From: Cryobacterium shii
Lineage (GTDB): Bacteria > Actinomycetota > Actinomycetes > Actinomycetales > Microbacteriaceae
Assembly: GCF_004402595.1 (NCBI RefSeq)
Contig: NZ_SOFY01000056.1
Span: 23,285-81,539, forward strand
DNA length: 58,255 nt
Direction: 5' to 3'
Within the stretch, counting starts at the first letter, position 1. Each line of letters begins with the position of its first letter. The notes beneath the pieces are model-generated. The model was not told where the DNA came from. It searched no databases and was given only the letters and a program-made list of their open reading frames with translations. Below, one piece after another: positions 6,401 to 52,732 of the stretch. The position numbers were made by a program, and so were the translations under genes.

Positions 6401-6483
6401 TAAGGTGGGTGTCAGAGCATTACAGCTCTTGAGATATTTCGGGCAGTATCGTGCCGCTGGTCGCTGCCGTCGAGAATGAAACC

Positions 6484-36157: not shown

Positions 36158-39100
36158 TCACGCTCTCCGCCGCCACATCTGAATGACGTTGTCCGCAGCC
36201 TCCGCCGCGACCACAACCCGCTCCCTCTCGGCAGCGTGGCGCGCCCGCACCTTCCCTGCCACGTCGAGCAGGTCCCACATCTGCTCGCCGGTCACTGAGA
36301 CTCCGCGGGCACCGGTCCTCCGGGTCCGGCCGCGGATCAGCGCATAGTGAGTGCGGAACACAGGTGCCCCGATCGCAGCCTGTGCGTCGTGGAAGAACAC
36401 CACGTTGGACACCGGCCCGCTGCCGTCGTCGAGGGAGAGGAACACGACACGTTTGCCGCTTCGCATCGGGGGAGTGTGGGTGGCGCGGCGGACCCCGGCG
36501 ACCAGGACTTCAGTGCCGCCCGGCAGGTTCACGAGCTCCGACGCGGGCGTGACCCCGAGTTCCTTGAAGAGTGGGTAGAACCGGGTCATTTGGTGGTGGC
36601 TGACGGCGAGGCCGAGGTCTCGGAGTTCCACGTCTGTTTGGGTGCGGCCGCGCAGGTCGAGGGCCGTGACCGAGCGGTCGAAGTCGGGCAGCGGTAGTTC
36701 AATGTCGAAGGCCAGTTGGTCGGGGCCGACGGGGAGGGCCTTGCCGCCGAGGCCTTGGATGTGGGCAAGAAGGTCGCCGCGGCGGGCCCGGTCGTAGCCG
36801 ATGAACGAGTCCAGGGCGCCGACCCGGGCGAACGCTGCGAACGTGCGCCGGCGCGGCCGCACCCTGTCCCGGAAGTCCTGCAATGAGGAGAACGGTTGAT
36901 GTTCCGCGATCCGCTGCCGCTCGAGCGCGCTGGATCCGGCGAGTTCTGGCAGGGCGAGGCGGATGGCGAGCTGCCCGTCGCCCAGTTGCTCGACCCGGTA
37001 GTCCAACGCCGACTTCTGGACGTCGAGGCCGAGGACTGGGACGCCGAGGTTGCGGGCTTCGGCGATGATCAGGTCCTTGGGCCACATGCCGGGATCGTGG
37101 GTGAGCAGCCCGGCGAAGAACGTCGCCGGGTGATGCGTTTTCAGCCACGCGCTCTCATACGTGGTCCGGGCGAACGCGGCCCCGTGCGCTTTGGCGAACC
37201 CAAAGCTGCCGAACCCGGACAGCACCTTCCACGCCCGATCCACGACAGGCTGGTTGAACCCGCGGCCGGCGGCCTGTTTCCGCACGTACGCTTCGATCTC
37301 GGCGAGGTCATCGGACTTCCCGAGGTGCCGGCGGAACACATCGGCTTTGCCCATCCCGCAGCCGGTCAGCTCGTCGAAGAGGCGCATGACCTGTTCGTGG
37401 AAGACGACGACACCGTTGGTTTCGGCGAGGAACGGTTTGAACCGTGGATGCATGTGGTCGGGTGCGACCTCCCCGTGCCGCGCCTTCAGATACTGGAGGG
37501 GCATGTTCGCTTGCATGGGGCCGGGGCGGAACAAGCTGATCTCCACGGTCAGGTCGTTGAACACTTCCGGTTGGAGCTTCCCGATCAGCTCCATCTGCCC
37601 GGGCGACTCGAGTTGGAAGACGCCGAGGGTGCGGGTGGTGCGGAGCATCTCGTAGGTGGGTTCATCGTCGAGGGGGACCCGGTCCAGGTCGATGGTCTCG
37701 CCGGTGAGTCGACGGTGCTCCTCGATCGCGTAGGCCATCGCGCTCTGCATTCGGACACCCAGGATGTCGAGTTTGATCAGACCCAATGGATCCATGTCGT
37801 GCTTGTCGTACTGCGACATCGGCAGCCCCATGCCCGAGCGTTGCACCGGAGTGCGGTCAAGGAGAGAGGTGTCGGAGAGGATGACGCCGCACGGGTGCAC
37901 GCTAATGTGGCGGGGGAGCCGGTCGAGCTTCGCGGTCAGGTCCACCAGCTGGTCCAGCTGCTGCGACTCGCGCACCTGCGCGGCAAGTTCCGCGAGCTCC
38001 GGCTTCTCCTCGAGCGCCCGGCGGAAGTCGCGAGCGTTGAACCGCCACATCTGCTTCGCGATCGCCGCGACCTGGTCCTCGGGCATGCCGAGCGCGAGCC
38101 CGGCGTCCCGGACGGCGCCCCGCCCCCGGTAGGCGTTGGTCATCGACATCAGTGACACCCGGTCGGCACCGAACACCTGGAACACTTCCCGATAGATGTC
38201 GTGACGCCGGGCGGATTCGACGTCGATGTCGATGTCGGGGAGGGTCTGGCGTTCGGGGGAGAGGAACCGTTCCCAGATGAGGCCGTTCTCGATCGGTTCG
38301 ACCGAGGAGGTGCGGAGCGCGTAGTTGAGGACCGAACCGACACCGGAACCCCGGGCCTGCACCCGAACGCCCATGCCCCGGATCAGGTCGGCGACCCGGG
38401 CGACGGTCAAGAAGTACGCGGCGAACCCGAGGTGCTCGACCGTCTCCATCTCATGCGCGAGCTCCAGGTGCGCGGCGCGGGCGAGGGTGGTGCCGGCGTA
38501 GCGGTCGTCGATGCCGTGCCGGGCCCGCCGCCACAGCTCAGCCACCGGGTCACCAACGACGCCGATGATCGCGGCCTCCGGCATCCGTGGTGTGCCAAGT
38601 CCGATGTCTCCGGCTGGGTCCAGGGCGCACCGGTCCGCCAGCTCGTGCGTGGTGCGGAGCAGTTGGTCGAGGGCGTCGGGGTTTCGGGCGCCGGCGTCGA
38701 CGACCATTCGGGCCACCTGGCGCATGTATGACCCGTCTTTCAGCCATGCCTGCCCGTTCGCCTGCGGTTCCTCGAGCTGGGCGAGCGGGGTGAGGAGCCG
38801 GGTAGCGTCGGCGAGGTCTGCGGTCGCCCCGTCACCAGGCTCCCCGTACCGGACCGCGTTGGAGAGGATGGCGGGGGTCCCTGTGTCCTCTGCGAGGCCC
38901 AGCATCCGGGTGGCTGCGGCCACGGAACCGCGCTGGCCGGCAGGTGCGAGATGGCAGACGACCTCGAGCGTGACGGACCCGATCGGCATGACCCGGAGCC
39001 ACGCGCGCAACCCCGCGACGGACTCTAGGTTGTCCCGGCGTTCCACCGCGAGCCCCACATCAGAGAGCGGGCCGAGGAGCACGGTCAGGGTACGACCCTC

Positions 39101-39466
39101 CGCCCAGGTGGCCAGTCGGCGCCGGTCGATGCTCGGCACCCGGCCTGCTTCGTGGGCGGAGCTCACGGCCCGGCAGAGAGCGGCGTAGCCGCGACCGTCC
39201 CGGCCGTGGGCTAGCAGGGTCACCCGGCCAAGCGGACGATGCTCATCATCGTGGACGGCTAGATCCGCGCCGAGGCCCGCCCGGATCCCGGCGGCCGCGC
39301 ACGCCCGCACGTGCTTCACTGCCCCGTACAGCCCATCCCGGTCAGTGAGAGCGAGGAAGTCAGCGCCGGCGGCTGCCGCCTGGTCGACGAGGGCCTCGGG
39401 CATGGTCACCCCGTAATGCGGGGAGTACGCGGAGGCAACGTGGAGGTGCGGGAAGCTCTGTCCCAT
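36158..39466 (-). CDS. dnaE2: Error-prone DNA polymerase III alpha subunit DnaE2
   Basis: An 1102-residue C-family polymerase. The N-terminal PHP domain is HLHVASAYSPHYGVTMPEAL, LALTDRDGLYGAVKH. Catalytic aspartates lie in LPDIDIDVESARRHDIY (about 405-409) and GLIKLDILG (about 566). Finger/thumb signatures include LFRPGPMQANMPLQYLKARH and GFAKAHGAAFARTTYESAWL; a C-terminal OB domain follows. DnaE2 performs translesion synthesis in the SOS mutasome with ImuA' and ImuB. Neither partner is in this window. The ATG follows GGAGG, and a LexA-type dyad sits 20 bp upstream. Length and motifs suggest an active enzyme. Confidence 0.95.
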   Translation of the reverse strand: MGQSFPHLHVASAYSPHYGVTMPEALVDQAAAAGADFLALTDRDGLYGAVKHVRACAAAGIRAGLGADLAVHDDEHRPLGRVTLLAHGRDGRGYAALCRAVSSAHEAGRVPSIDRRRLATWAEGRTLTVLLGPLSDVGLAVERRDNLESVAGLRAWLRVMPIGSVTLEVVCHLAPAGQRGSVAAATRMLGLAEDTGTPAILSNAVRYGEPGDGATADLADATRLLTPLAQLEEPQANGQAWLKDGSYMRQVARMVVDAGARNPDALDQLLRTTHELADRCALDPAGDIGLGTPRMPEAAIIGVVGDPVAELWRRARHGIDDRYAGTTLARAAHLELAHEMETVEHLGFAAYFLTVARVADLIRGMGVRVQARGSGVGSVLNYALRTSSVEPIENGLIWERFLSPERQTLPDIDIDVESARRHDIYREVFQVFGADRVSLMSMTNAYRGRGAVRDAGLALGMPEDQVAAIAKQMWRFNARDFRRALEEKPELAELAAQVRESQQLDQLVDLTAKLDRLPRHISVHPCGVILSDTSLLDRTPVQRSGMGLPMSQYDKHDMDPLGLIKLDILGVRMQSAMAYAIEEHRRLTGETIDLDRVPLDDEPTYEMLRTTRTLGVFQLESPGQMELIGKLQPEVFNDLTVEISLFRPGPMQANMPLQYLKARHGEVAPDHMHPRFKPFLAETNGVVVFHEQVMRLFDELTGCGMGKADVFRRHLGKSDDLAEIEAYVRKQAAGRGFNQPVVDRAWKVLSGFGSFGFAKAHGAAFARTTYESAWLKTHHPATFFAGLLTHDPGMWPKDLIIAEARNLGVPVLGLDVQKSALDYRVEQLGDGQLAIRLALPELAGSSALERQRIAEHQPFSSLQDFRDRVRPRRRTFAAFARVGALDSFIGYDRARRGDLLAHIQGLGGKALPVGPDQLAFDIELPLPDFDRSVTALDLRGRTQTDVELRDLGLAVSHHQMTRFYPLFKELGVTPASELVNLPGGTEVLVAGVRRATHTPPMRSGKRVVFLSLDDGSGPVSNVVFFHDAQAAIGAPVFRTHYALIRGRTRRTGARGVSVTGEQMWDLLDVAGKVRARHAAERERVVVAAEAADNVIQMWRRRA

Positions 39467-39485
39467 CCGTACCTCCAACCCCTGC

Positions 39486-39505
39486 TATCGAACGTTTATT
39501 CGATA
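39486..39505 (-). promoter_or_regulatory. LexA/SOS box upstream of dnaE2
   Basis: TATCGAA-N6-TTCGATA is a perfect dyad. Read on the dnaE2 strand it contains CGAATAAACGTTCG, one mismatch from the actinobacterial/Gram-positive LexA consensus CGAAC-N4-GTTCG. The position just upstream of the dnaE2 start fits SOS induction. Confidence 0.8.
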
Positions 39506-39608
39506 TGGGGAGTGTAGGTCTGGGCTCTGACACTGACAAGGTCTGGCGTGTACGATTCCGGTGAGATGGCCAGCTTCAAGCCGTGAATTGACCGTCGCCG
39601 CGTCATTG

Positions 39609-40217
39609 ATGTCCTACCGGGAAAATGGAGCTCAATTGTCGAGCAGCGATGCAACTGGCCCGTGGCATTCAGGACGACGGTTGATTGGGGGCGCTCTCGC
39701 TTTGTGCCTGATTTTGACTCTTTCGGCCTGCTCTGATTTGCAAGCGCACGTCCGAGAGCAAGCTCTGGCGAATGCTCGCATCACCATCGAGAAGGTCTCC
39801 GCCCTCGCTGTCGAAAACGCTATTGGCCTCGACATCGACAGCTACGTGGCTGCGGTGACCGCGGGAGAGGCCTGGCCCAAGCCCGTGTTCGCCACAGTCC
39901 GCCAGGACATGGGTCAAGAACTCCCCGCTTGGGCGAGAGGAGCGTCCTTCGGCGCAGTCATCGACCAGTCGGGTTCCTACCCGGTAGTGCGGACTAACTA
40001 CGCTGCGCAGGGGCAAGCTTCCGCCGGAAGTGGATTCAATTCCAGGATCGCCCGCGTGCTGGTCTGTGTGAGCATCGGCGTCGGGTACTTAGGAGGGCGA
40101 GTCGATGTGAATATGCCCCCGTCTATTCTTGCCGTGGAATGCCCTGCTGACGTGCAGAGGTATTACGGCGCGGACGAACTAGTCACGCTGGACGAGGTGC
40201 TCGCTGCACCGCTGTGA
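39609..40217 (+). CDS. Putative lipoprotein
   Basis: A 202-residue protein. A polar N-region of about 25 residues is followed by RRLIGGALALCLILTLSAC, a lipobox with Cys41 as predicted lipid anchor. The mature part is soluble (ARITIEKVSALAVENAIGLD, VRTNYAAQGQASAGSGFNSR, CVSIGVGYLGGRVDVNMPPS). The n-region is long for a lipoprotein, so the true start may be a later TTG. Family unknown. It is divergent from dnaE2. Confidence 0.7.
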   Translation: MSYRENGAQLSSSDATGPWHSGRRLIGGALALCLILTLSACSDLQAHVREQALANARITIEKVSALAVENAIGLDIDSYVAAVTAGEAWPKPVFATVRQDMGQELPAWARGASFGAVIDQSGSYPVVRTNYAAQGQASAGSGFNSRIARVLVCVSIGVGYLGGRVDVNMPPSILAVECPADVQRYYGADELVTLDEVLAAPL

Positions 40218-40238
40218 CCTCGCACCTCCGGCTCTGCC

Positions 40239-40817
40239 CTACTTGGCGTACTTCCCTGAGCCGTTGAGCGCCGCGTAGAGTGTCTGCCGCGACACTCCGA
40301 GATCCCGGGCGATCTTTGCCTTTGGCACGTCCTGAGCGATCCGCTCGCTAGCTTGCTGGACCTGCTCGGGGGTGAGTTTCGGAGCTTTCTCGTACTTCCC
40401 GTCCCGCTTGGCGATCGCTATGCCCTCGGCCTGCCGTTCCCGGATGGTCTTGCGCTCCAGCTGCGCGATGGCAGCGAGAACCGTGAGCATGAACTCGCCT
40501 TGGGGGGTATCCGTATTCAGGGCCGGGTTGTCGACGAACTCCAACGCGACGCCCTTCGCCTTGAGCTGTTCGACGAGCGCGAGAAGATCAGTCGTCGACC
40601 GTGCAAGTCGGTCCGGTGACTTCACCCGAACCTTGTCCCCATCGCGCACGTAGGTGAGCATCTCCTGGAGCTTGGCTCGGTCTTCGGTGTTCTTGCCCGA
40701 AACCTTCTCGGAGAACATCTTGTCCACCGTGCCGAGCGCTTCAAACTGCCGCGCTTCGTTCTGGTCGGCGGCGCTAACGCGCACGTAGCCGACCACCTGC
40801 CCTTTATGTCCAGACAT
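40239..40817 (-). CDS. Serine recombinase (resolvase/invertase family)
   Basis: A 192-residue small serine recombinase. The catalytic domain starts VVGYVRVSAADQNEARQFEA with Ser15 as nucleophile, then VRVKSPDRLARSTTDLLALV and FMLTVLAAIAQLERKTIRER. A C-terminal HTH (KAKIARDLGVSRQTLYAAL) follows. Such enzymes resolve cointegrates or invert DNA at res/gix sites. The ATG follows a GGGGGG ribosome-binding site. Paired direct repeats lie upstream. It is the only complete recombinase in the window and could have moved part of this island. Confidence 0.92.
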   Translation of the reverse strand: MSGHKGQVVGYVRVSAADQNEARQFEALGTVDKMFSEKVSGKNTEDRAKLQEMLTYVRDGDKVRVKSPDRLARSTTDLLALVEQLKAKGVALEFVDNPALNTDTPQGEFMLTVLAAIAQLERKTIRERQAEGIAIAKRDGKYEKAPKLTPEQVQQASERIAQDVPKAKIARDLGVSRQTLYAALNGSGKYAK

Positions 40818-40860
40818 GTCTAAGACCCCCCGTCGCTTCTGTCCAACAGTACCGAACACC

Positions 40861-40924
40861 CACCCTGATTGACGTGACTTTCGAGCGATCTGGAACTGCT
40901 CAGTGGGGTACACCCTGATGGACG
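40861..40924. repeat. Direct repeat pair, candidate res site
   Basis: CACCCTGATTGACG (40861) and CACCCTGATGGACG (40911) are direct repeats differing at one base, 50 bp apart, just upstream of the resolvase start. Resolvases act at and autoregulate from sites in this position, so these may be recombination subsites. Confidence 0.45.
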
Positions 40925-40947
40925 ATCACGCCACTCGCGTCTATGCG

Positions 40948-42273
40948 TCAGGTCGCACGCGACTGGCTGTAAATGAGTCCTGAGTCGACGCGTCGCGTAT
41001 TGATGTGTTCTTGCAGAATCCAAGCAGCTCCCGCGGTGGGCGTCGTCGCCTCGAAGATCCCGAGAGGCATGTGCACTTCCTTGCGGTCATCCCAGTCGAG
41101 CACTGAAACGTTTGCGTGGGCGAGCGCCACGACTACTTCCACACCAAGATCCCGCACTGCTAGACAGAGATCGAGGAACTCCCGCCTGCGGAGGTCCGAC
41201 ACGTTAGTCGGGGTCCAGCGAGGATCCTCGGGAGTTGGATTTACTCCACCACCGCGGTGAATAAGCAGCACATCGACGCCGCTCAGTCTCTCGGGTCTGT
41301 AAAGCACGCGTTCTAGCCGAGACACGAACGCGAGCAACGGGTCCGTCGTGTTCGTGGCAGTGTTTGACGAAACTAAAATCGGGTCACCGTGGTGGATCTG
41401 TGCCCCCGCATGGTCCAGTACTCCTCGCACGACGTCAAGAGCTGTTGATCCCGACTTCGTGGTCATCTGCCTGAGGCTCAACTGATCTCGCTCAGTGTCG
41501 ACCTCGCCCCAGTAGCCGACGTCGAGGCTGCTGGCGGGGTCCGCGTTGCCACCTTCCAAGACGGTGGACCAATGGCTCAGCGTGTGCACCAGGTAATTTA
41601 AAAGATGATTCTCCTGCGATGCCCACCGCTCAGTCGTAGCGGTGGTCCAGAACGCATAGTTGAGTTGTGCACCTTCCGCCCCAAAGTCCTGCCCAAGGCG
41701 ATAGCGGAGGCGGCGAAGGAGGATTCTGACCTCTGCCGGGCGTTTCGCCAGAGTCCGCCAAGCGGAGTTCCCACTTTTGGCTTCGAGTGCTTCGAGGACT
41801 TCGGCCGTCAGATATCGATCGAGCCGCAAACCAGTCCCGCCGCGCTGGTACGGGCGTATAAGTCCGAGCCAAGTTCCGTTGTCTTGGTCCAGGTCCTCCA
41901 TTTTGTCTTGAGGCGTTTTGTCTTTGAGTTGTTTGAGGTCGAGTTGAACGGCGCCGCGCCACAGGCCCATCGCCTGTCCGATGGCCAAAGCGACCTCTTT
42001 GCGAGCGGTGCCCACGGTTGCTCGATCCGCCTCGCAATAGAAGCGCAACGCAACACGTACGCCTTGAGTATCCGTCTCGCGCTTGCCCTCGGGCAGTCGG
42101 TCGAGGCCGACCGCCTCGCAGCACCGTAGAGAGCATCCGGCGTCGCGCTCAGCCCGATTACTCGACGCGGCCAGGGCTTCGGCGGCCTGCGCGACAGCCC
42201 AATTCACGGAGAGTTGGATACCTGCCATGAGAGCCACCCTAACGGCGAGACCGGTGCTCCGTCTTGCATCCAT
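40948..42273 (-). CDS. Exonuclease VII large-subunit-like protein (divergent XseA catalytic domain)
   Basis: About 441 residues. The C-terminal part follows the order of XseA: LSLRQMTTKSGSTALDVVRG (compare the GVITS.TGAA..D motif), DVLLIHRGGGV (RGGGS motif, residues about 340-343), VEVVVALAHANVSVLD where XseA has PVVSA.GHETD, and FEATTPTAGAAWILQEHI (compare the R.PTP.AAAELV motif). The conserved HE-D of true XseA is replaced, and no xseB is nearby, so this is not the housekeeping enzyme. The N-terminal 230 residues are not assigned. It is divergent from the type I R-M operon, suggesting a defence-linked nuclease. ATG at 42228 is an alternative start. Confidence 0.6.
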   Translation of the reverse strand: MDARRSTGLAVRVALMAGIQLSVNWAVAQAAEALAASSNRAERDAGCSLRCCEAVGLDRLPEGKRETDTQGVRVALRFYCEADRATVGTARKEVALAIGQAMGLWRGAVQLDLKQLKDKTPQDKMEDLDQDNGTWLGLIRPYQRGGTGLRLDRYLTAEVLEALEAKSGNSAWRTLAKRPAEVRILLRRLRYRLGQDFGAEGAQLNYAFWTTATTERWASQENHLLNYLVHTLSHWSTVLEGGNADPASSLDVGYWGEVDTERDQLSLRQMTTKSGSTALDVVRGVLDHAGAQIHHGDPILVSSNTATNTTDPLLAFVSRLERVLYRPERLSGVDVLLIHRGGGVNPTPEDPRWTPTNVSDLRRREFLDLCLAVRDLGVEVVVALAHANVSVLDWDDRKEVHMPLGIFEATTPTAGAAWILQEHINTRRVDSGLIYSQSRAT

Positions 42274-42392
42274 GAGTCGCACCTGTCGCCGCCGGCGGCT
42301 CAGATGCGTGTCGAAGACGCCCCACACCGACCAAGGAGGAGAGCGGTGCACCCACAGGGACAGGGCGAGCCGGGCGTGTCAATTTGGCGTTT

Positions 42393-42410
42393 CTCATACA
42401 CTCGAATGAG
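42393..42410 (+). promoter_or_regulatory. Candidate regulatory dyad upstream of hsdM
   Basis: CTCAT-N8-ATGAG forms a perfect 5-bp inverted repeat 30 bp before the hsdM start, in the intergenic region shared with the divergent XseA-like gene. It may be an operator or part of the promoter; the evidence is only positional. Confidence 0.3.
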
Positions 42411-42439
42411 GTAACAAACAGGACTAGGACTGAGTGGGC

Positions 42440-44392
42440 ATGACAGACACAGCAATGATTTCCGCAAGCTCAACAACGACAGCGCGAATCGTCTGGGACA
42501 CGGCCGACAAGTTCCTCCGCGACGTGGTCGAGGAGGAGGACTACGGCGACTACATCCTCCCGTTCACTGTCCTGCGTCGCTTGGAAGGCATGCTGGCCGA
42601 CTCCAAGGACGAGGTCGTCCAGTTCGTGCAAGGACTCGGCGCGCTGCCGCCCCACCTCATCGACATCGCGGTCAAGGACAAGTTCGGCCTGAGCTTCTAC
42701 AACGTATCCCCGTTGGACCTAGCAACCATCGCCTCGGTCGACGACAACGTCGACAAATCCCTTCTGAGCTACGTCTCCGGGTTCTCTAACAACATCGGCG
42801 ACATCTGGACCGCCTTCGATTTTCCGAGGCGGGTCGCGACCCTGGCTTCGGCGAACCGTCTGCACGCGGTCATCAAGCACTTTTCTAACCTGGATCTGAA
42901 TCCTTCAGGCGTCGCCAACACGGCAATGGGCGACATCTTTGAGGATGTCATGTATCGGGCCTTCAACAAGAAAGGAAAGGCTGCCGGCGCTTTTTACACC
43001 CCACGCGATGCCATCCGGCTCATGGTGGACATCCTGTTCGCCGCCGACGAGGACTCTCTAGTCGGGGAGAGCACGCTGCGCTCTATCTATGATCCGACCG
43101 CGGGATCTGGCGGTATGCTGATCGTCGCTCAGGACGCCCTGCGCGATCTGAACCCGGATATCAAGGTCACGCTCTTCGGGCAGGAGCTCATGGATTCGGC
43201 CTTCGGGCTCGGCAAGGCCGACCTGGTCATTCAGGGAGGCCGCCCGGATGCCATCAGGCAGGGGAACACGCTCGTAAGCGACCTTTACGATGGCCAGACC
43301 TTCGACTACGTCCTTTCGAACCCTCCCTTTGGCAAGGACTGGTCGGCAGACCAGAAGACGGTCCGTGAACAGGCGAAGGTGCCGGACTCCCGGTTCAGTC
43401 ACGGCCTGCCGAGCACCAGCGACGGACAGATGCTGTTCCTTGCGCACTGCGCCTCAAAACTCAGTCCAGCCGACAAGAAAGGCCACGGCGGCCGCGCGGC
43501 TGTCGTCTCCAACGCCTCACCGCTGTCCAGTAGCGACAAGGGCCCGAACGCGATCCGCCAGTGGCTGCTCGAGGAGGACCTCATCGACGCGATTGTCGCG
43601 CTGCCCGCGGACATGTTTTACGGCACCGGAATCGCGACCTACGTCTGGATCCTCGACGCGAACAAGGATCTCGAACGGAAGGGAAAGATCCAGCTCATCG
43701 ACGGCTCCGGCGGATGGGAGCCGATGCGGAAGCCAATGGGCGACAAGCGCAGGGAGATGAGCAAGGATAATCGACGCGTGGTGCTCGAAGCGTATAAGGC
43801 GTTCGAGGATGCGGACTCGATGATCTCGCGCGTGATGACTCCTGAGGACCTCATGTTCCGGGACGTGCCGGTCTACAGGCAGGCTCGGTTCGCGACCCGC
43901 TTCAGCGAGCAGGCGGTCGACGAGCTCCGCAGTCGCAGTGACTTCACCGATGCGCACGTCGAGGTGCTGCGCTCTCTCGACGGCACGCCCTGGAGCGAGT
44001 TGCCGAATACGTTCCCGCAAGCTGCGGGGGTCGCTGGGCTGAAGGCTCCCCTCGGCCTCGTCGACGCTGTCATGTTGGCCTTGGCGGTGGCGGACGACTC
44101 TGCGCCTCTGGCCGTAGACCGAAAGGGCAAGCCCGTCGTTAATGACGGCTGGAAGATCACCGAGCGCGTGCCGCTGAGTGAAGACGTTGCCGAACATTTG
44201 GAGCGCGAGGTGCTGCCGTTCGCTCCGGACGCCCAATGGGACGAAAGCAAAGCCAAATATGGCACCGAGATTCCGTTCACCCGGATCTTCTTCGTGCCTA
44301 AGGAACCGCGCCCACTGGTCGATATTGATGCGGACGTGCAGATGATCATGGGTGAGCTTGCCGAGATGTTCAAGGTGGTGAGCGAAGAGTGA
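42440..44392 (+). CDS. hsdM: Type I restriction-modification methyltransferase subunit HsdM
   Basis: A 650-residue N6-adenine methyltransferase. The N-terminal HsdM helical domain (WDTADKFLRDVVEEEDYGDY) is followed by the SAM-binding motif YDPTAGSGGML (about 217) and the catalytic NPPFGKDW motif (about 294). GIATYVWILDANKDLERKGK and GDKRREMSKDNRR are typical type I segments, followed by a C-terminal tail that contacts HsdS. It methylates the recognition site to protect self DNA. It is first of three genes joined by 4-bp stop/start overlaps. Start at ATG MTDTAMISA; a GTG six bases upstream is also in frame. Confidence 0.97.
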   Translation: MTDTAMISASSTTTARIVWDTADKFLRDVVEEEDYGDYILPFTVLRRLEGMLADSKDEVVQFVQGLGALPPHLIDIAVKDKFGLSFYNVSPLDLATIASVDDNVDKSLLSYVSGFSNNIGDIWTAFDFPRRVATLASANRLHAVIKHFSNLDLNPSGVANTAMGDIFEDVMYRAFNKKGKAAGAFYTPRDAIRLMVDILFAADEDSLVGESTLRSIYDPTAGSGGMLIVAQDALRDLNPDIKVTLFGQELMDSAFGLGKADLVIQGGRPDAIRQGNTLVSDLYDGQTFDYVLSNPPFGKDWSADQKTVREQAKVPDSRFSHGLPSTSDGQMLFLAHCASKLSPADKKGHGGRAAVVSNASPLSSSDKGPNAIRQWLLEEDLIDAIVALPADMFYGTGIATYVWILDANKDLERKGKIQLIDGSGGWEPMRKPMGDKRREMSKDNRRVVLEAYKAFEDADSMISRVMTPEDLMFRDVPVYRQARFATRFSEQAVDELRSRSDFTDAHVEVLRSLDGTPWSELPNTFPQAAGVAGLKAPLGLVDAVMLALAVADDSAPLAVDRKGKPVVNDGWKITERVPLSEDVAEHLEREVLPFAPDAQWDESKAKYGTEIPFTRIFFVPKEPRPLVDIDADVQMIMGELAEMFKVVSEE

Positions 44393-45561
44393 TCAGTCAC
44401 ACAGTGCACAAGTCTGGACTTGAAAGCACGTTGTTTCCCATGGCTCCCATCGGCTCACTAGTTGTCGAACGCAGCGAGAAAGTCAGTGCGACCGATTTCC
44501 CCGCATTATCTGTAGGGAAACGTGGAGTTACTCCACAGCTTGAAGGAGTTGCCAAGACTCAAACCGATGGTGACCGTAAGCTCGTGCGAGCTGGTGATCT
44601 GGTCATCAATTCTCGCTCTGACCGCCGTGGGGCTGCGGGCCTAGCGAGGCAAGACGGAAGTGTCTCGCTGGTTTACTCTGTCATGACGCCGAAACCTGGA
44701 GTTCTGCTTGCTGAGTACGGGCATCACCTCCTGAGGAGTACTGCCTTCCAAGAAGAGTTCTTCCGTTGGGGTACGGGGATTGTCGATGATCTATGGTCAA
44801 CAAATTTCACAAGGATGTCTCGCATACACATTCCTCTGCCACCACCAGGAGTACAGCGCTCAATCGCGGATCACCTCGACCAGGTCGATGCGATGATCGG
44901 CAAGCTTGACGATCTCACCGAGCAGTTGACCGCACACCGTAGGACGAATCTCGTCACCCTAGGTCGCCAGCTCGTCGCACCTGGCGAGCGGACGCGAGTC
45001 GGCTTGCTATTGACAAAACAGTCCCTCGACGCACGCCCGGGCGATGGTGTCGTGACCGCGTTCAGGGACGGACAGGTGACGCTTCGTTCTCGTCGGCGCG
45101 AAGAGGGTTTCACCATGTCATTCATTGAGGCTGGGTACCAAGGAGTCGAACCGGGGGACTTCGTGTTTCACGGACTCGACGGTTTCGCCGGAGCGGTGGG
45201 GGTCTCGGAAGACAGGGGGAAAGTCAGTCCTGTGTACCACGTGTGCAATGCGACACCCTTGGCGTCGGAGAGGTTCATGGCATGGGCGCTCAGAGCGTTG
45301 GCTGCCAACGGATTCCTTGAGGCCTACGCTTCCTCCGTGCGGCAACGGTCAGTTGACTTCCGAAACTGGACGACATTTGCCGGGCTGCCGATCACATACT
45401 TGCCACTGGACGAACAGCAACGCATCGCTAACCACCTCGACGAGGTCTTCGGCAAAATCAACGCCATGCTGGCGAGTGTCGCCAAGCTAAAAGAGCTTCT
45501 CGTTGAGCGGAGTTCCGCGTTCATCACCGCTGTTGTTACAGGGAAGAAGGAAGTCGCATGA
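44389..45561 (+). CDS. hsdS: Type I restriction-modification specificity subunit HsdS
   Basis: A 390-residue HsdS with two target-recognition domains separated and followed by conserved coiled-coil spacers. TRD1 spans about residues 10-155; the central repeat is RSIADHLDQVDAMIGKLDDL; TRD2 spans about 200-345; the distal repeat is RIANHLDEVFGKINAMLASV. The DNA sequence recognised cannot be read from the TRDs. The GTG start overlaps the hsdM stop (GTGA) and its end overlaps the hsdR start (ATGA), indicating tight coupling. Confidence 0.95.
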   Translation: MISHTVHKSGLESTLFPMAPIGSLVVERSEKVSATDFPALSVGKRGVTPQLEGVAKTQTDGDRKLVRAGDLVINSRSDRRGAAGLARQDGSVSLVYSVMTPKPGVLLAEYGHHLLRSTAFQEEFFRWGTGIVDDLWSTNFTRMSRIHIPLPPPGVQRSIADHLDQVDAMIGKLDDLTEQLTAHRRTNLVTLGRQLVAPGERTRVGLLLTKQSLDARPGDGVVTAFRDGQVTLRSRRREEGFTMSFIEAGYQGVEPGDFVFHGLDGFAGAVGVSEDRGKVSPVYHVCNATPLASERFMAWALRALAANGFLEAYASSVRQRSVDFRNWTTFAGLPITYLPLDEQQRIANHLDEVFGKINAMLASVAKLKELLVERSSAFITAVVTGKKEVA

Positions 45562-48500
45562 GCCACGCGCAGTTGATGGAGTTGGAGTTTGAGACCAACC
45601 TCTGTGACGAGCTCTCCGGACGAGGCTGGCTCTACGAGAATTTCGGAAAACCGACTGGCTGGGACGCAGGCTTGGCGATGATCCCCAGCGACGTGCTTGC
45701 CTGGCTGAGCACCCAGTACCCCGACGAATTCGTCAAGGCGGTGCCTGACGACCTCGTCAACGGTGCCAAGGACGCCTCCGAGCGCAAGCTCCTCCAGCAC
45801 CTCACCAGGGAGCTTGCGAAGGCGACAAGGACGGACACTACGACGGGCCACCCCGTTGGCGGTCTGTTGGGCGTGCTTCGGCGCGGCTTCAGCTACGCCC
45901 AGGTCGGGCGGCCCACCGCCAAGTTCGGGCCGATGATGACGTTCCCCCCGGCCAACCCGAGCCTCACCGAGGTGCTTGAGGCATCCGGCGCCGTTCGCCT
46001 TCGCATCCTTCGCCAAGTGCGTTTCGACACCGAGACCAACGACTCCATCGACGTCGTTCTGACCGCAAATGGCATCCCCGTAGTGACGATGGAACTGAAG
46101 ACCGATAACACCCAAACGGTCAACCACGCCATCCGCCAGTACAAACAGGACCGCAAGCCCGGCAAGACCCGAGCGCTGCTAGGAGCCGGCCGTGTGTTGG
46201 TCCACTTCGCCGTATCCAACGACCTCGTGTTCATGACCACGAAACTCCAAGGCGAGGACACTGTTTTCCTGCCGTTCAACCGAGGCAACGACGGGCACGA
46301 GGGCAACCCGCCGTCCGACGGCTCCTCAACGAACTACCTCTGGAGAGACATCCTGGCCCGCCCGACCTTCATGCGCATCCTCAAGGACTTTGCGCTCTGG
46401 GAGCCGAGCAAGACCGGCAAGAAGGGCGAGGGGCGGCTCATCTTCCCGCGCTTCCACCAGCTGCGGGCCGTTGAGCGAGTGGTCAACGACATCGAGGTCA
46501 ACGGCCCCGGTGGGCGCTACCTGATCTGGCACTCCGCGGGTTCCGGCAAGACAAAGACCATCGCATGGCTGAGTCACCGCCTCATCCGCCACATGAGTGC
46601 TGGCTCAAAGTCGACCTTCGATTCGGTGATCGTAGTCACTGATCGGACAGTGCTGGACGAAAACATCCGCGATGACATGAATCTGGTCCAGTCCAGCAAG
46701 GGTCTCGTGTTCACGGTCGGCGAGAAGTCCGGCGCGAAGTCTCCGCAGTTGAAGAAGGCCCTAGTTGAGGGCGACCACATCATCACCTGCACCTTGCAGA
46801 CTTTCCCCGAGGTGATGAAGCTGATCGAAGATACCAGCGAGCTGCGAGGCAGGCGCTGGGCGGTCATCGCGGACGAGGCGCACTCGTCCCAGTCAGGCTC
46901 CACGGCGCGTGACCTTAAGGCGCTACTGGTCGATGTGGACCTCGGCGACGAGGAGGACATCAGCGCCGACGACCTGTTGCGGGCTAAGGACTCGGCCATC
47001 GCAGCGTCCAGCAACATCACGTTCGTCGCCCTGACTGCGACACCGAAAGGTAAGACGCTGCGGCTATTCGGCACCGAGCGCGACGGTAAGTGGGAAGCCT
47101 TCGACACCTACACCATGGCCCAGGCCATCGAGGAAGGCTTCATCCTGGACGTGCTGTCTAACTACTCGACCTACGATATGTTCCTCCGCGTCAAGAACAA
47201 ATTGACTGAAGAAGCAGAGATCCAGGTGCGTACCGGTGAAGCGGTGACCAACATCGTCCGCTTCGCTCGGCTGCACCCGACCGCGATCGCCCAGAAAGTA
47301 AGGGTCGTGGTCGAGCACTTCCGACGAAACGTCATGCACGTTCTGGACGGCACCGCGAAGGCGATGGTCGTCACCACCACGCGCATCGAGGCATACCACT
47401 GGTCGATGAAGATGAACGAGTACATTGCGTCCCAGGGATACACCGACATGCGCACCCTCGTCGCGTTCTCAGGCACGCTCACCCCCGATGGGACGGACGG
47501 TGTGACCGAGGTGGGGCTGAACCAGCGCAGTGACACAGCCAAGGCATTTCGCGAAGAAGGTGAGTACCGCGTGCTCATCGTCGCGAACAAGTTCCAGACT
47601 GGCTTCGATGAGCCGCGCCTGGTGGCGATGTACGTCGACAAGAAGCTCTCTGGCGTCGCCACCGTCCAGACGCTCTCGCGCCTCAACCGCACCTATCCCG
47701 GCAAGCCCGCGCCGATGGTGGTGGACTTCCGAAACTCCCCTCAGAACATTCAGGACGACTTCAAGATCTACTACTCGGATGCCCACGTGACCGGAGACGT
47801 GGACCCCAACGTGATCTACACCATCTCTGACCGTTTGGACACCGCTGGCCTCTACAGCAGCGACGAGATGGTCGCAGTCGCGAAGGCATATTTGGAGAGC
47901 GAGAATGGCGAGGTGCTGGCAAAGACCCTCGGTCCCATCAAGGATCGTTGGAATGGACAGTGGAAGCAGGCCAACCTCAAGAAGGACAAGGCTAAACGTG
48001 AGGAACTGGAGAGCTTCCGGGCTGACGTGATCGGCTACAGGAACGCTTGGCAGTTCCTCAGCCAGATCGTCGACTACCAGGATCTGGACCTCCATCGCCG
48101 GGCCATCCTGACGACATTGTTGGCACGAAACTTGCACGTTGACGATCGCCAATATGACGACAGTTACCTAGAGGGTGTCCAGCTCTCTGGATTGAAGTTC
48201 ATGCCTTCCGCAATCAACGCGGATCATTCGTTGACCGAGGGCAGCAGCGAAGGGATTAATCTGCCTGTGTTCGAGGGCGAACACAAGTCTGAGGGTGCTC
48301 CGAGTCGGGGTCCTCTCGATGAGGCGATCGAGCGCGTGAACGAGATGTTCCAGGCTAAGGGCGTCGATGTCAGCACAGCGAGCGTTGCTGGCTTCCTCAC
48401 CACCTTCTGGGGATTCTTGGACGCCAACGCTGAAGCCGTCGCGATGGCTAAGAATAACTCCGTCGCACAACTCAAGGCGTCTGAGGGCTTTGGGGGAGCC

Positions 48501-48668
48501 GTTGGGCTGGCAGTGCTCAAGACTTTCCAGGAGACGCAGGAGATCCAGTCGTATATGACAGATCCTGGGTTCTTGGCGGAAGTTACGGAGGTCAGCGCCG
48601 ACGCCCTTCACGCGCAGCACAATGCAGCGCCCTCGTCCGACCCTGCCGTGGATTACTTATTGGCATGA
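45558..48668 (+). CDS. hsdR: Type I restriction endonuclease subunit HsdR
   Basis: A 1036-residue protein. An N-terminal PD-(D/E)xK nuclease is seen as SIDVVLTANGIPVVTMELKT (about 163-181), the SF2 translocase has Walker A HSAGSGKTKT (about 325-334) and the DEAH box IADEAHSSQSG (about 437), and the second RecA-like domain includes VANKFQTGFDEPRLVAMYVD. The C-terminal helical part binds the methylase. It cleaves unmodified DNA after ATP-driven translocation. All key motifs are intact, so the R-M system should be functional. Confidence 0.97.
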   Translation: MSHAQLMELEFETNLCDELSGRGWLYENFGKPTGWDAGLAMIPSDVLAWLSTQYPDEFVKAVPDDLVNGAKDASERKLLQHLTRELAKATRTDTTTGHPVGGLLGVLRRGFSYAQVGRPTAKFGPMMTFPPANPSLTEVLEASGAVRLRILRQVRFDTETNDSIDVVLTANGIPVVTMELKTDNTQTVNHAIRQYKQDRKPGKTRALLGAGRVLVHFAVSNDLVFMTTKLQGEDTVFLPFNRGNDGHEGNPPSDGSSTNYLWRDILARPTFMRILKDFALWEPSKTGKKGEGRLIFPRFHQLRAVERVVNDIEVNGPGGRYLIWHSAGSGKTKTIAWLSHRLIRHMSAGSKSTFDSVIVVTDRTVLDENIRDDMNLVQSSKGLVFTVGEKSGAKSPQLKKALVEGDHIITCTLQTFPEVMKLIEDTSELRGRRWAVIADEAHSSQSGSTARDLKALLVDVDLGDEEDISADDLLRAKDSAIAASSNITFVALTATPKGKTLRLFGTERDGKWEAFDTYTMAQAIEEGFILDVLSNYSTYDMFLRVKNKLTEEAEIQVRTGEAVTNIVRFARLHPTAIAQKVRVVVEHFRRNVMHVLDGTAKAMVVTTTRIEAYHWSMKMNEYIASQGYTDMRTLVAFSGTLTPDGTDGVTEVGLNQRSDTAKAFREEGEYRVLIVANKFQTGFDEPRLVAMYVDKKLSGVATVQTLSRLNRTYPGKPAPMVVDFRNSPQNIQDDFKIYYSDAHVTGDVDPNVIYTISDRLDTAGLYSSDEMVAVAKAYLESENGEVLAKTLGPIKDRWNGQWKQANLKKDKAKREELESFRADVIGYRNAWQFLSQIVDYQDLDLHRRAILTTLLARNLHVDDRQYDDSYLEGVQLSGLKFMPSAINADHSLTEGSSEGINLPVFEGEHKSEGAPSRGPLDEAIERVNEMFQAKGVDVSTASVAGFLTTFWGFLDANAEAVAMAKNNSVAQLKASEGFGGAVGLAVLKTFQETQEIQSYMTDPGFLAEVTEVSADALHAQHNAAPSSDPAVDYLLA

Positions 48669-48809
48669 CGACAATTCTCCAACGGCTGTGAGTCGGGGTT
48701 GATCTATGTGCCATGCTCGACGCCAGCGCGCCCGGTCGCAGGCCACGCTTGGCGAGCACGCGGGCGGTCGTGGCGCAGGCCGACTCACAGAGCAGGGCAC
48801 GTTTGGAGC

Positions 48810-49040
48810 ATGGACCATTCTGATCAAGGCCCCGCTGCCGAGGTCCGAATTGGCGACCTGATCACGGTCTGGGACGGCACTGGTTACCGGGTCCGAGAGG
48901 TCACTCCTTCCGCCTCCAGCAAGATCATTGAGATCGAGGCAATCGTGGAAGTTGTTGCCCCTGGTGGACCTGAACTCGGTCGCCGGTTCAGGCTCCGCAA
49001 GCGAGCCGGGACGATGCTGATAGTCGAGCGTGTTGGCTGA
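48810..49040 (+). CDS. Small hypothetical protein (76 aa)
   Basis: MDHSDQGPAAEVRIGDLITV followed by WDGTGYRVREVTPSASSKII and a basic end (RRFRLRKRAGTMLIVERVG). The pattern of short beta strands suggests a small barrel. It begins 141 bp after hsdR on the same strand; the ATG is preceded by GGAG at short spacing. The upstream in-frame extension is Arg-rich and not protein-like. Family unknown. Confidence 0.5.
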   Translation: MDHSDQGPAAEVRIGDLITVWDGTGYRVREVTPSASSKIIEIEAIVEVVAPGGPELGRRFRLRKRAGTMLIVERVG

Positions 49041-49052
49041 AACGGCATGGGG

Positions 49053-50123
49053 TCACGGCCCAGGCTGACCTGGGAGATTTGCCAACGATATTCGGTGCGC
49101 AGGCCATAGCCCTGTGGGCCCGTAAGGGGCTGTGAAGATGACATCGTGATCGGCTGCCACATTGGGTGATCCGAATTGGTCGCAGATGGTCGAGAACGTC
49201 ATGCCTTCCCGGTACACCGCCTCGAGCGGAACCCCCCAAAGATGCGACAGCGTCTGAGCGTATTCCTCGAGGACGAAGCTCCCGACGAAGGCACCAGGAT
49301 CGCCTGCAATCACCAGCGCCTTGTCATCACCACCGATAATCATGTGTTTCTTGTCTTTCCAAGACACTTTCGTCATGTAGCTAAGCCGTGCGTAAACCTC
49401 CCTGAACTGCGTCGGATGCAGTTTCATCCCGCGTGCGGCGTTGAGTTGAAGCTGCTGAACACCCTCCGAGCGGCCCCAATCCTGAAGAATGCACACGACC
49501 CCGATCCTTCCCATGCGAAGGCCGATTATTGGTACGTAGATGTCATCCATGTAGTCAAAGCGTCGTCCTGGCTCGTCATCGTCCAAGCACTCGAAGAAGT
49601 GGAAGCTGGCGGGTCCGGGCCCCTCCGGCTCCCAGCTGACGAACCCACCGGCTGATTGGAGGAGAAAATGGTGGAATGAAACGCTCTGGAGCTGTGACTC
49701 TGGAACTAGACGTTCGCCAGCTTGCTCTTTTACAAACCTTGGGCGGAGGCTCTCCTTGTAGAGAAGACCGTAGTAGATCTTCCCAAGCCAGATGAAAAGG
49801 TCCCGTCGGTCCAAGGTGCTGAAAGCTTCGATGCCAGCTAAGAACGCCGCTTTGACACGAGCCTCCACTGCGCTCAGGTCGCGCCCGTTGCAGATCAGGC
49901 AACAAGGCACAGTGAGCTGGCGGTATTGAAGCAACTCGTCGTTGAGCTGATGAACAGTGCCATTCCACAGATTCAATTCGTGCAGAAGCCATTTGGGGAA
50001 CACATGTTCCACCGTGCGAAGCGGGGACCCTTCCGGGACGTGACATCCGCAGATGAAACAACGATCAGGCCCAAACTCCTGCGACCGAGCCTTCAGGAAA
50101 TGATGATGGATGTCCGTAGGCAT
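49053..50123 (-). CDS. HNH-type nuclease-like protein (356 aa)
   Basis: The N-terminus carries a zinc-HNH arrangement: CFICGCHVPEGSPLRTVEHV, FPKWLLHELN, then VPCCLICNGRDLSAVEARV. That is CxxC, the EHV.P histidine, CxxC and an Asn, as in HNH endonucleases of accessory genomes. The remaining 270 residues are unassigned and mixed alpha/beta. Converging on the hsdR end of the R-M locus, it could be a modification-dependent or accessory restriction enzyme, but only the HNH-like head is supported. Confidence 0.65.
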   Translation of the reverse strand: MPTDIHHHFLKARSQEFGPDRCFICGCHVPEGSPLRTVEHVFPKWLLHELNLWNGTVHQLNDELLQYRQLTVPCCLICNGRDLSAVEARVKAAFLAGIEAFSTLDRRDLFIWLGKIYYGLLYKESLRPRFVKEQAGERLVPESQLQSVSFHHFLLQSAGGFVSWEPEGPGPASFHFFECLDDDEPGRRFDYMDDIYVPIIGLRMGRIGVVCILQDWGRSEGVQQLQLNAARGMKLHPTQFREVYARLSYMTKVSWKDKKHMIIGGDDKALVIAGDPGAFVGSFVLEEYAQTLSHLWGVPLEAVYREGMTFSTICDQFGSPNVAADHDVIFTAPYGPTGLWPAHRISLANLPGQPGP

Positions 50124-51007: not shown

Positions 51008-51041
51008 GCAACATATCGAGATATAGTTGCGTATATGCAAC
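51008..51041. promoter_or_regulatory. Candidate operator, GCAAC/GTTGC units at the antitoxin start
   Basis: Three alternating half-sites GCAAC (51008), GTTGC (51026) and GCAAC (51037) surround and overlap the ATG at 51035, forming two overlapping inverted repeats. The placement on the translation start suggests autoregulation by the HTH antitoxin-like protein. Confidence 0.5.
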
Positions 51042-51829
51042 GCATCATCGACCAGATCATCGAGGGGTCCGGGCTGTCCAAGTCCGCCCTCGCGGCGCGG
51101 TCTGGGCTCGCGAGGTCGACGCAGTACCGGATACGCGATGGCCTCGTCGACCCAGCCATTGGCACCGTCCGCGAGCTTGCCCTGGCCGCAGGCTTTGAGC
51201 TCGTGCTCTCCCTGGCGCCGCTGTCAGACCCGGATGCGGCACGGGCAGCTCGGGTGATCCTTGATCCGCTGTACGAGGCTTCATACCTTCTGACCACAGG
51301 GACGACCGGAGAGGCGAAGAAAGTCGACGAATGGGTCGAGCGTCTTCGCCGGTGGGTGCCAGACGGCAACCCGGTGGACATCGTTTCGCAGGCCGGGCAG
51401 AGCTCGAGCCTGCTGCACCGACCCGGCACTGTGTTTCTGCGCGGCCACGTTACTGAGCTCAAGCTCGCCTCGGCTGGCGACTTCTCCCAGCAAGAATGGC
51501 TGATTTCCGGCGCTGCTGTCATCGACCGAATCGGCGTGCCGGATGACGAGGGGGCCCTGTACGGCGGTGCTCTGCCAGGCACCAGTGCCTGCCCGTACAT
51601 CGTGCACACCGCAGATACTCACCGCTTCGCGCGACTCCTGGACAACATGGAGACGGTTCGCCCCAACAAGGCGAACGTCATCATCGCCGAGTACACCGCC
51701 GGCGTCGAGGTCGACTCGTGGGAGGACGGCAAGATCAAGCTCGCGGCTCCGATCCAGGGTCTGCTCGACGCCTTCGGCATCAGAGGCGCCCTCGGAATAG
51801 CCGCAGAGCGCATCGCCCGGAGCTGGTGA
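51035..51829 (+). CDS. HTH antitoxin-like protein (AbiEi-like C-terminus), partner of Fic
   Basis: A 264-residue protein. N-terminal XRE-like HTH: SGLSKSALAARSGLARSTQY, RIRDGLVDPAIGTVRELALA. The middle holds LYEASYLLTTGT and a beta-rich segment RPGTVFLRGHVTELKLASAG. The end, SWEDGKIKLAAPIQGLLDAF, resembles the aspIQ..LD segment of AbiEi-type antitoxins. It sits 4 bp ahead of a Fic-domain gene, the usual antitoxin-toxin order. Its promoter carries GCAAC/GTTGC dyads. The antitoxin role is inferred from context. Confidence 0.7.
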   Translation: MQRIIDQIIEGSGLSKSALAARSGLARSTQYRIRDGLVDPAIGTVRELALAAGFELVLSLAPLSDPDAARAARVILDPLYEASYLLTTGTTGEAKKVDEWVERLRRWVPDGNPVDIVSQAGQSSSLLHRPGTVFLRGHVTELKLASAGDFSQQEWLISGAAVIDRIGVPDDEGALYGGALPGTSACPYIVHTADTHRFARLLDNMETVRPNKANVIIAEYTAGVEVDSWEDGKIKLAAPIQGLLDAFGIRGALGIAAERIARSW

Positions 51830-51832
51830 AGC

Positions 51833-52732
51833 ATGGATGAGACCAGCAAGCCTCAGAACAGCCCGGATAAATACAGAGCCTGGGCCGTCAGCGCTGACCG
51901 CTTCGTGAAGCAGCCGAGACCGAAGCCGGCCAGCGCTACCGGCCGGCCGCCGGCGCCCCGTACCTCTCTCAGTTCCTCGGCAACGCAGGTCCAGCTCGAG
52001 GAGACCGGCATCACCTGGGATCGGTCCGTCGTCGATTGGTCGCTTCTCGAGCGCTCAACTGTGGACCGCGCGCGCAGCCGGTTCCGCGCCTCCCTGCCGG
52101 AGTACATCTGGGACGCTGCCGCGCTGGAAGGCAACCCGTACACGCTCCCTGAGGTGCAGACCCTCCTCGAAGGCATCACCGTCACCGGGCACCGCATCGC
52201 GGACCAGGACCAGATTCTCGCCCTCAACGACGGGTTCAACCTCACCGACGAGCTTGTTGGTACCAGCAAGTTCTACCTCGACAAGGCAACGAGCGATGAG
52301 ATCCATGCAAAGGTCGCCGTTTATGAGGCGATCGAATCGGGTCACTTCCGCGGCGAGGGCTCAGCCGGCGGTGGCGGACACGTCAGTATCGGCGCCCTCG
52401 GAACCTTCCACGCCTCCGAGCCCGGCGAGAATGGCACGACCCTCAAGCGAGAATTCTCTCGCTTGAGGGCCTATCTCCTCGAAGACGTTGAAGACCCACG
52501 TGAACAAGCCATCGCGTACTTCTGCGCCGCGACGAGGCGACAGTTCTACTTCGACGGCAACAAGCGCACCGCGAAGCTGATGATGGCCGGGCACCTGATG
52601 CAGAACAGCTACGACGCGATCTCCATCTCGGCCAGACGCCAGCTGGAGTTCAACCAGCTCCTCGCCCCCCTGTTCGACACCGGCGAGGCCACCGCGATGA
52701 TGCAGTTCATCATCGACTCGCGTCCCGCGTAA
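51833..52732 (+). CDS. Fic-domain protein with non-canonical active site (His to Gln)
   Basis: A 299-residue Fic/DOC-fold protein. The active loop is RQFYFDGNKRTAKLMM (residues 236-251), where the canonical HPFxDGN(G/K)R would have His at 237; here it is Gln, while Asp241, Gly242, Asn243 and Arg245 are kept. The upstream helix WDAAALEGNPYTLPEV (about 93-108) resembles the inhibitory [ST]xxxE[GN] motif with Glu99, Gly100. Fic enzymes transfer AMP or other phosphates to proteins. Loss of the His suggests altered chemistry or a non-catalytic role. Co-transcribed with the HTH/AbiEi-like gene. Confidence 0.85.
   Translation: MDETSKPQNSPDKYRAWAVSADRFVKQPRPKPASATGRPPAPRTSLSSSATQVQLEETGITWDRSVVDWSLLERSTVDRARSRFRASLPEYIWDAAALEGNPYTLPEVQTLLEGITVTGHRIADQDQILALNDGFNLTDELVGTSKFYLDKATSDEIHAKVAVYEAIESGHFRGEGSAGGGGHVSIGALGTFHASEPGENGTTLKREFSRLRAYLLEDVEDPREQAIAYFCAATRRQFYFDGNKRTAKLMMAGHLMQNSYDAISISARRQLEFNQLLAPLFDTGEATAMMQFIIDSRPA

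What the first reader, a model, noticed from the sequence alone, without database searches (positions are those of the whole stretch)
40948..44392. XseA-like nuclease divergent from a type I restriction-modification operon
The gene shows the order of exonuclease VII large-subunit catalytic motifs (TS.GA..D-like, DVLLIHRGGG, a VVVALAH replacement of VVSA.GHETD, ATTPTAGAAW for R.PTP.AAAE). The HE-D residues are changed, the N-terminal OB-type domain is not evident, and xseB is missing. Its divergent promoter with hsdM suggests co-inheritance with the R-M system. I know of no described defence system built on an ExoVII-like protein of this form, so it may be a new restriction-associated effector.
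Basis: partly seen in the sequence, partly recalled or inferred. Interest (0 to 1): 0.75.

Follow-up and report, generated by a model that had tools for sequence, protein, structure and literature searches.

The report
Stand-alone ExoVII-like nuclease beside restriction operon
A rare bacterial gene lying next to an intact type I restriction operon keeps three of the four key residues of the DNA-repair enzyme exonuclease VII but lacks its partner-binding tail and, as predicted, its usual DNA-binding domain, and it likely makes a stand-alone nuclease that may help destroy foreign DNA.

The parts
40948..42228 (-). ExoVII-like gene, 426 aa, ATG start at 42228
   Evidence: start supported by P0001 (426 aa, 98% identical) and by several relatives that start at the same point
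41905..42225 (-). N-terminal region, residues 1-107: predicted helix-helix-strand-strand-helix-helix-strand, read as KH-like
41506..41823 (-). Middle region, residues 135-240, with R171, R172, R174, D180, W193 and W201 invariant in 30 of 30 ungapped members
   Evidence: models; no assigned fold
40999..41490 (-). XseA-type catalytic domain, residues 246-409
41434..41436 (-). D264, counterpart of E. coli XseA D155 (25 Asp, 6 Glu of 31)
   Evidence: D155A is called a catalytic-domain mutant of XseA in PMC11077951 (passages)
41254..41256 (-). R324, counterpart of E. coli R205 (30 of 30 ungapped)
41116..41118 (-). H370, counterpart of E. coli H238 (29 of 30 ungapped); the D241 position, three residues on, is Val here
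   Evidence: 8txr is the H238A mutant
41050..41052 (-). E392, in the place of E. coli R252 (28 of 30 ungapped)
40239..40817 (-). Serine recombinase (resolvase), downstream in the same direction
   Evidence: PF00239 E 2.2e-37; 33% identical to the recombinase beside the G877 homologue
42229..42439 (.). 211-bp divergent intergenic region between the ExoVII-like gene and hsdM
   Evidence: no sigma-70 consensus found
42440..44392 (+). hsdM, type I methyltransferase, 650 aa
   Evidence: PADLOC MTase_I E 1.6e-199; Pfam N6_Mtase and HsdM_N
44389..45561 (+). hsdS, type I specificity subunit, 390 aa
   Evidence: PADLOC Specificity_I E 1e-41
45558..48668 (+). hsdR, type I restriction subunit, 1036 aa
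   Evidence: TIGR00348 E 9e-50, 169.9 bits, under its cut-off of 284.55; Pfam HSDR_N, SWI2_SNF2, T1R_D3-like over their cut-offs

Best explanation
The gene encodes a protein with a remote exonuclease VII-type catalytic domain, without the XseB-binding tail or a neighbouring xseB, and it is predicted to act as a stand-alone DNA-cutting enzyme that likely serves as an accessory defence gene carried by mobile elements. Shown: the family relation; retention of the D155, R205 and H238 counterparts; loss of D241; absence of the tail and of xseB nearby; the host's own xseA-xseB elsewhere; rarity and patchy distribution; a serine recombinase next to it in two loci. Predicted: a KH-like N-terminus in place of the OB domain. 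Inferred: that D264, R324 and H370, with E392 perhaps standing in for the lost acid, still hydrolyse phosphodiester bonds; that the N-terminal region and the Arg/Trp-rich middle bind DNA in place of the OB domain; that the substrate is incoming phage or conjugative DNA, possibly ends or single strands left by restriction. It is treated as exchangeable cargo in the position divergent from hsdM, not as a subunit of the R-M enzyme.
Confidence: 0.45

Rival explanations
1. An element-maintenance protein: the ExoVII-like enzyme processes single-stranded or recombination intermediates of the mobile element that carries it, together with the serine recombinase or conjugation genes, and has no defence role.
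For: Serine recombinase next to it in the window and within 176 bp, divergent, in G877; type IV coupling protein and TrwC-type relaxase 12-15 kb away in G877; a helicase-like fragment follows the L032 homologue; ExoVII acts on ssDNA (PMC9699676, passages).
Against: Recombinases also sit near related R-M operons that lack the gene (L059, L060, L066), so they may mark the hosting elements and not this gene. No homologue in 72,556 plasmid or 50,697 phage records.
Confidence: 0.25
2. A catalytically dead or remodelled ExoVII relative that binds DNA and regulates, senses or recruits without cutting.
For: Loss of D241, replacement of R252 by Glu, and loss of H370 in L032.
Against: D/E264, R324 and H370 are kept in 31 of 31, 30 of 30 and 29 of 30 ungapped members, and further acidic and His residues are near-invariant, which suits an active enzyme.
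Confidence: 0.18
3. A dedicated fourth subunit of this type I R-M system, co-inherited with hsdRMS.
For: Divergent from hsdM with 211 bp between the start codons.
Against: 0 of 10 related hsdM loci carry it, among them one with M 86.6%, S 89.0% and R 87.0% identical; no plasmid match at all; no type I operon seen beside the G877 homologue.
Confidence: 0.07

Closest known systems
Exonuclease VII large subunit XseA (Pfam PF02601; E. coli structure 8txr)
   Same: Fold and motif order of the catalytic domain; counterparts of D155, R205 and H238
   Different: No XseB-binding tail, no xseB nearby; D241 lost, R252 to Glu; N-terminus predicted KH-like, not OB; below the Pfam gathering score
PADLOC candidates PDC-S11 and PDC-S14 (PDC = phage defence candidate, recalled)
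   Same: In two related loci these genes lie divergent and directly upstream of hsdM, as this gene does
   Different: Other families (NucS_C-like; DUF4357); this gene matches no PADLOC model
Type I restriction-modification (hsdMSR)
   Same: Neighbour, complete
   Different: The ExoVII-like gene accompanies none of 10 related hsdM loci
XseA-like protein in genome G199 (L034:877-2313, -)
   Same: PF02601 domain with RGGG and a non-canonical AIGHARN motif
   Different: Different architecture, hydrophobic stretches near the C-terminus by eye; it matched the family profile only at E 1e-3 over 58 positions

Membership tests
Exonuclease VII large subunit (XseA) | Catalytic-domain fold and colinear motifs | tested here: met
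Exonuclease VII large subunit (XseA) | Counterparts of D155, R205 and H238 | tested here: met
   D264, R324 and H370: 31 of 31 (Asp or Glu), 30 of 30 and 29 of 30 ungapped. That R205 and H238 are functional residues is recalled; D155 is from PMC11077951 (passages)
Exonuclease VII large subunit (XseA) | Counterpart of D241 (recalled as functional) | tested here: not met
   Val in the window; Asp in 1 of 30 ungapped members
Exonuclease VII large subunit (XseA) | N-terminal OB domain | tested here: not met
   By prediction: no OB-domain match in Pfam scans of the window and 18 members, and predicted secondary structure of residues 1-107 is two helices, two strands, two helices, one strand. The fold list alone would be inconclusive
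Exonuclease VII large subunit (XseA) | C-terminal XseB-binding part and an xseB gene | tested here: not met
   28 residues follow TPT. A motif scan of ORFs of 45-120 aa in 39400-49200 found none like XseB (the motif does match the host XseB); tblastn of host XseB on the window: best E 0.41. Host xseB beside host xseA: PF02609 E 4.1e-16
Exonuclease VII large subunit (XseA) | Score over the PF02601 gathering cut-off | tested here: not met
   Window: no match; best member P0020 26.9 bits against 35.9
Exonuclease VII large subunit (XseA) | Exonuclease activity on ssDNA in both directions | not testable with these tools
   Needs biochemistry; the activity of ExoVII is stated in PMC9699676 (passages)
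Known anti-phage defence systems (PADLOC) | Match to a PADLOC model | tested here: not met
   Window protein at E<=1, relatives P0020 and P0027 at E<=0.01: 0 families
Type I restriction-modification, co-inherited part | Present with related hsdMSR operons | tested here: not met
   0 of 10 related hsdM loci by tblastn and no match in the plasmid collection
Type I restriction-modification (the neighbour) | Complete hsdM, hsdS and hsdR | tested here: met

The most novel reading that the evidence does not exclude
A new class of stand-alone ExoVII-type immune nucleases: a KH-like DNA-sensing front end and a remodelled ExoVII active site that destroy invading DNA, carried as an interchangeable module in a 'nuclease slot' divergent from mobile type I restriction operons.
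Probability: 0.25. Interest if true: 0.72.

Novelty: new variant of a known kind. Interest (0 to 1): 0.5.

Why it matters
Canonical ExoVII is a two-subunit housekeeping enzyme. A lineage that has dropped its partner subunit and, as predicted, its OB domain, reshaped the active site and moved onto mobile DNA would show how the ExoVII fold can work alone, and would make testable which residues it truly needs. If protective, it would add an ExoVII-type effector to bacterial immunity; the rows listed by the paper searches named in the report (capped lists, open-licence library) describe none.

Tried and rejected
Rejected: obligate co-inheritance with the R-M operon. All 10 related hsdM loci that I fetched (L057-L066) were checked by local tblastn at E<=1e-3, 0 of 10 with the gene (six of them also). 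They are the best 8 of 32 plasmid records and 2 of the 14 congeners other than the host; L062 is only an hsdM fragment. The two congeners were also searched whole without a match.

Rejected: the weak genome-search hits L035 (LacI-type regulator frame) and L036 (HTH protein) as chance, judged by eye. L034 is a real PF02601 protein but of another kind.

Rejected: a Piwi relation (one member, E 0.038).

Inconclusive: the empty-site test. In five dnaE2 stretches from four congeners the match to the window stops at 39544-39547 (four stretches) or 39458 (the more distant fifth); beyond it the window has no match in them apart from two short pieces near 53.6 and 56.8 kb, so the element borders could not be set. 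No clear end repeats were seen. GC3 is 0.664 against 0.80 for hsdM and hsdR but 0.613 for hsdS, so it tells nothing.

Choices made: of 30 xseA loci 10 did not show my motif pattern and 15 of the remaining 20 were aligned, so the XseA side is of canonical members; A4 holds 15 of the 31 family sequences.

No relatives in viral contigs, plasmids or phages. Plain Foldseek lists for the full and N-terminal models are weak; that OB folds are not listed is no evidence by itself. In the large genome surveys 4 candidates at most per genome were scored, so rarity may be overstated. The genera of the Curtobacterium relatives (P0020, P0026) could not be singled out, and protein hits come without neighbourhoods.

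Full report
What is there. The gene at window 40948-42228 (-) is an intact 426-aa frame; the likely start is ATG 42228, with GGGTGG just upstream. Residue numbers here are for the 425-residue translation window:40951-42225, which lacks the Met (add 1 for Met-counted numbers). Upstream and divergent, 211 bp away, begins a complete hsdM (42440-44392), then hsdS (44389-45561) and hsdR (45558-48668). Downstream, in the same direction, is a serine recombinase (40239-40817; PF00239). The protein itself has no match in Pfam, NCBIfam or PADLOC at E<=1 and none better than E 0.47 in PHROGs.

Relatives. Three protein searches gave 28 distinct proteins at E<=1e-3 (20; 2 more; 6 more); in each search only about 8,000 candidates were scored, and none of the hits shows a functional name. 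Named sources include Microbacterium gorillae (P0021, a 206-aa C-terminal part), Curtobacterium (P0020, P0026) and an unclassified actinobacterium (P0012). In genome contigs one locus was found, a 31% identical copy in an Aeromicrobium MAG (L032). Genome surveys: 1 of 57 genomes of the genus, the host itself; family set 398, the host plus one partial hit to another PF02601 protein, L034; order set 396, the host plus G877 full length at E 1.5e-158; class set 394, the host plus two hits that look like chance; phylum set 396, the host only; two other genera of the same family 0 of 60 and 0 of 99 (no known positive in those sets). The sets overlap, and in the four large ones at most 4 candidates per genome were scored. 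No relatives in plasmids, phages or viral contigs.

Active site. E. coli numbers come from the phmmer alignment of the host XseA to 8txr joined to the hhalign alignments. Over 31 family sequences (window, 28 proteins, G877, L032; fragments and the near-duplicate P0001 included; P0017 is a shorter form of the G877 protein) the D155 counterpart is Asp in 25 and Glu in 6; R205 is Arg in 30 of 30 ungapped; H238 is His in 29 of 30 (L032 has Asp); D241 is Asp in 1 of 30; R252 is Glu in 28 of 30, the two exceptions being truncated or shifted ends. H323 (28 of 30), E363 (30 of 30), E406 and H407 (28 of 28 each) are also conserved. [quoted passage not shown] The roles of R205, H238 and D241 are recalled, not from a call; the two papers I hoped to read are not held. 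So the site is recognisably ExoVII-like but remodelled; whether it cuts is inferred.

Link to the R-M operon. Related HsdM proteins occur in 15 of 57 genomes of the genus including the host at E<=1e-60 and in 32 plasmid records at E<=1e-100. I fetched 10 of these loci: eight plasmids (L057-L060, L063-L066) and two congeners (L061, L062). None has the ExoVII-like gene (tblastn). In Arthrobacter sulfonylureivorans plasmid p1 M, S and R are 86.6, 89.0 and 87.0% identical to the window's, without it. L062 is only an hsdM fragment. What precedes hsdM differs: a SAP/DUF6434 gene (L057), a divergent NucS_C-like gene that PADLOC calls PDC-S11, E 1.1e-147 (L058), ligase-like ORFs by eye (L059), a recombinase (L060), a divergent DUF4357 gene that PADLOC calls PDC-S14, E 4.7e-120 (L061), a small ORF after gyrase A (L062), a relaxase (L063), an integrase (L064), a HigBA pair at some distance (L065), two recombinases (L066). 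So the position upstream of hsdM is variable, and in 2 of 10 it holds another divergent defence candidate. This is suggestive and not statistically tested.

Other loci of the family. G877 (complete genome): the homologue lies 176 bp from a divergent serine recombinase (33% identical to the window's), 12 kb from a type IV coupling protein and about 15 kb from a TrwC-type relaxase, and 6.5 kb from an MmeI-like type IIG methyltransferase/nuclease, helicase and T5orf172 cassette. L032: the homologue is followed by a helicase-like fragment. Three loci are too few to fix a neighbourhood rule.

Reading. The best-supported account is a mobile, XseB-independent ExoVII-type nuclease, likely an accessory defence gene and exchangeable cargo beside the R-M operon. 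Rivals are an element-maintenance nuclease and a non-cutting relative. Literature: in the rows listed by searches (20 of 34; 12 of 12; 20 of 251; 5 of 5; 10 of 36; 10 of 414; 6 of 6; 1 of 1; 8 of 19) no title or abstract start describes an ExoVII-like defence protein; only listings were seen apart from passages of PMC11077951, PMC12004951 and PMC9699676.

Noticed in passing
L034:877-2313 (-), genome G199: A second non-canonical PF02601 protein (479 aa, E 5.4e-20) with RGGG and AIGHARN motifs and hydrophobic, TM-like stretches near the C-terminus by eye; no PADLOC match at E<=0.01.
   Followed up: partly
L058:4632-5747 (-) and L061:4563-5510 (-): Directly upstream of and divergent from related hsdM genes lie PADLOC candidates PDC-S11 (NucS_C-like) and PDC-S14 (DUF4357): a possible exchangeable slot of type I operons.
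   Followed up: partly
window 48669-49052: Six of the seven related plasmid operons whose stretch runs past hsdR have a short HTH gene right after it (L057-L060, L063, L064; not L065; L066 is cut). The window shows no evident counterpart among ORFs of 30 aa or more there, judged by eye.
   Followed up: partly
window 51035-52732: Protein with weak HTH matches followed by a Fic-like protein (E 0.0046) with a weak PDC-S04 match (E 2.6e-4).
   Followed up: no
window 56999-58192 (-): TnpB-like protein with a Cas12f1-like TNB domain (E 1.2e-12).
   Followed up: no
window 36158-39545: A DnaE2-type polymerase gene (name by recall; Pfam DNA polymerase III alpha domains) 90-91% identical in DNA to copies in three congeners and 81% in a fourth; the match stops just upstream of the gene, at 39544-39547 in four copies and 39458 in the fifth, and the host has another copy (76% identical protein) elsewhere.
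   Followed up: partly
window 49053-50123 (-): 356-aa protein with a CxxC...H...CxxC pattern resembling an HNH nuclease by eye; only a weak PtuB match (E 0.054).
   Followed up: no
L062 (genome G007), around 6164-7642: A lone hsdM fragment (72% identical, 461 residues) about 1 kb after gyrase A, with no hsdS or hsdR match in the fetched 14 kb.
   Followed up: no
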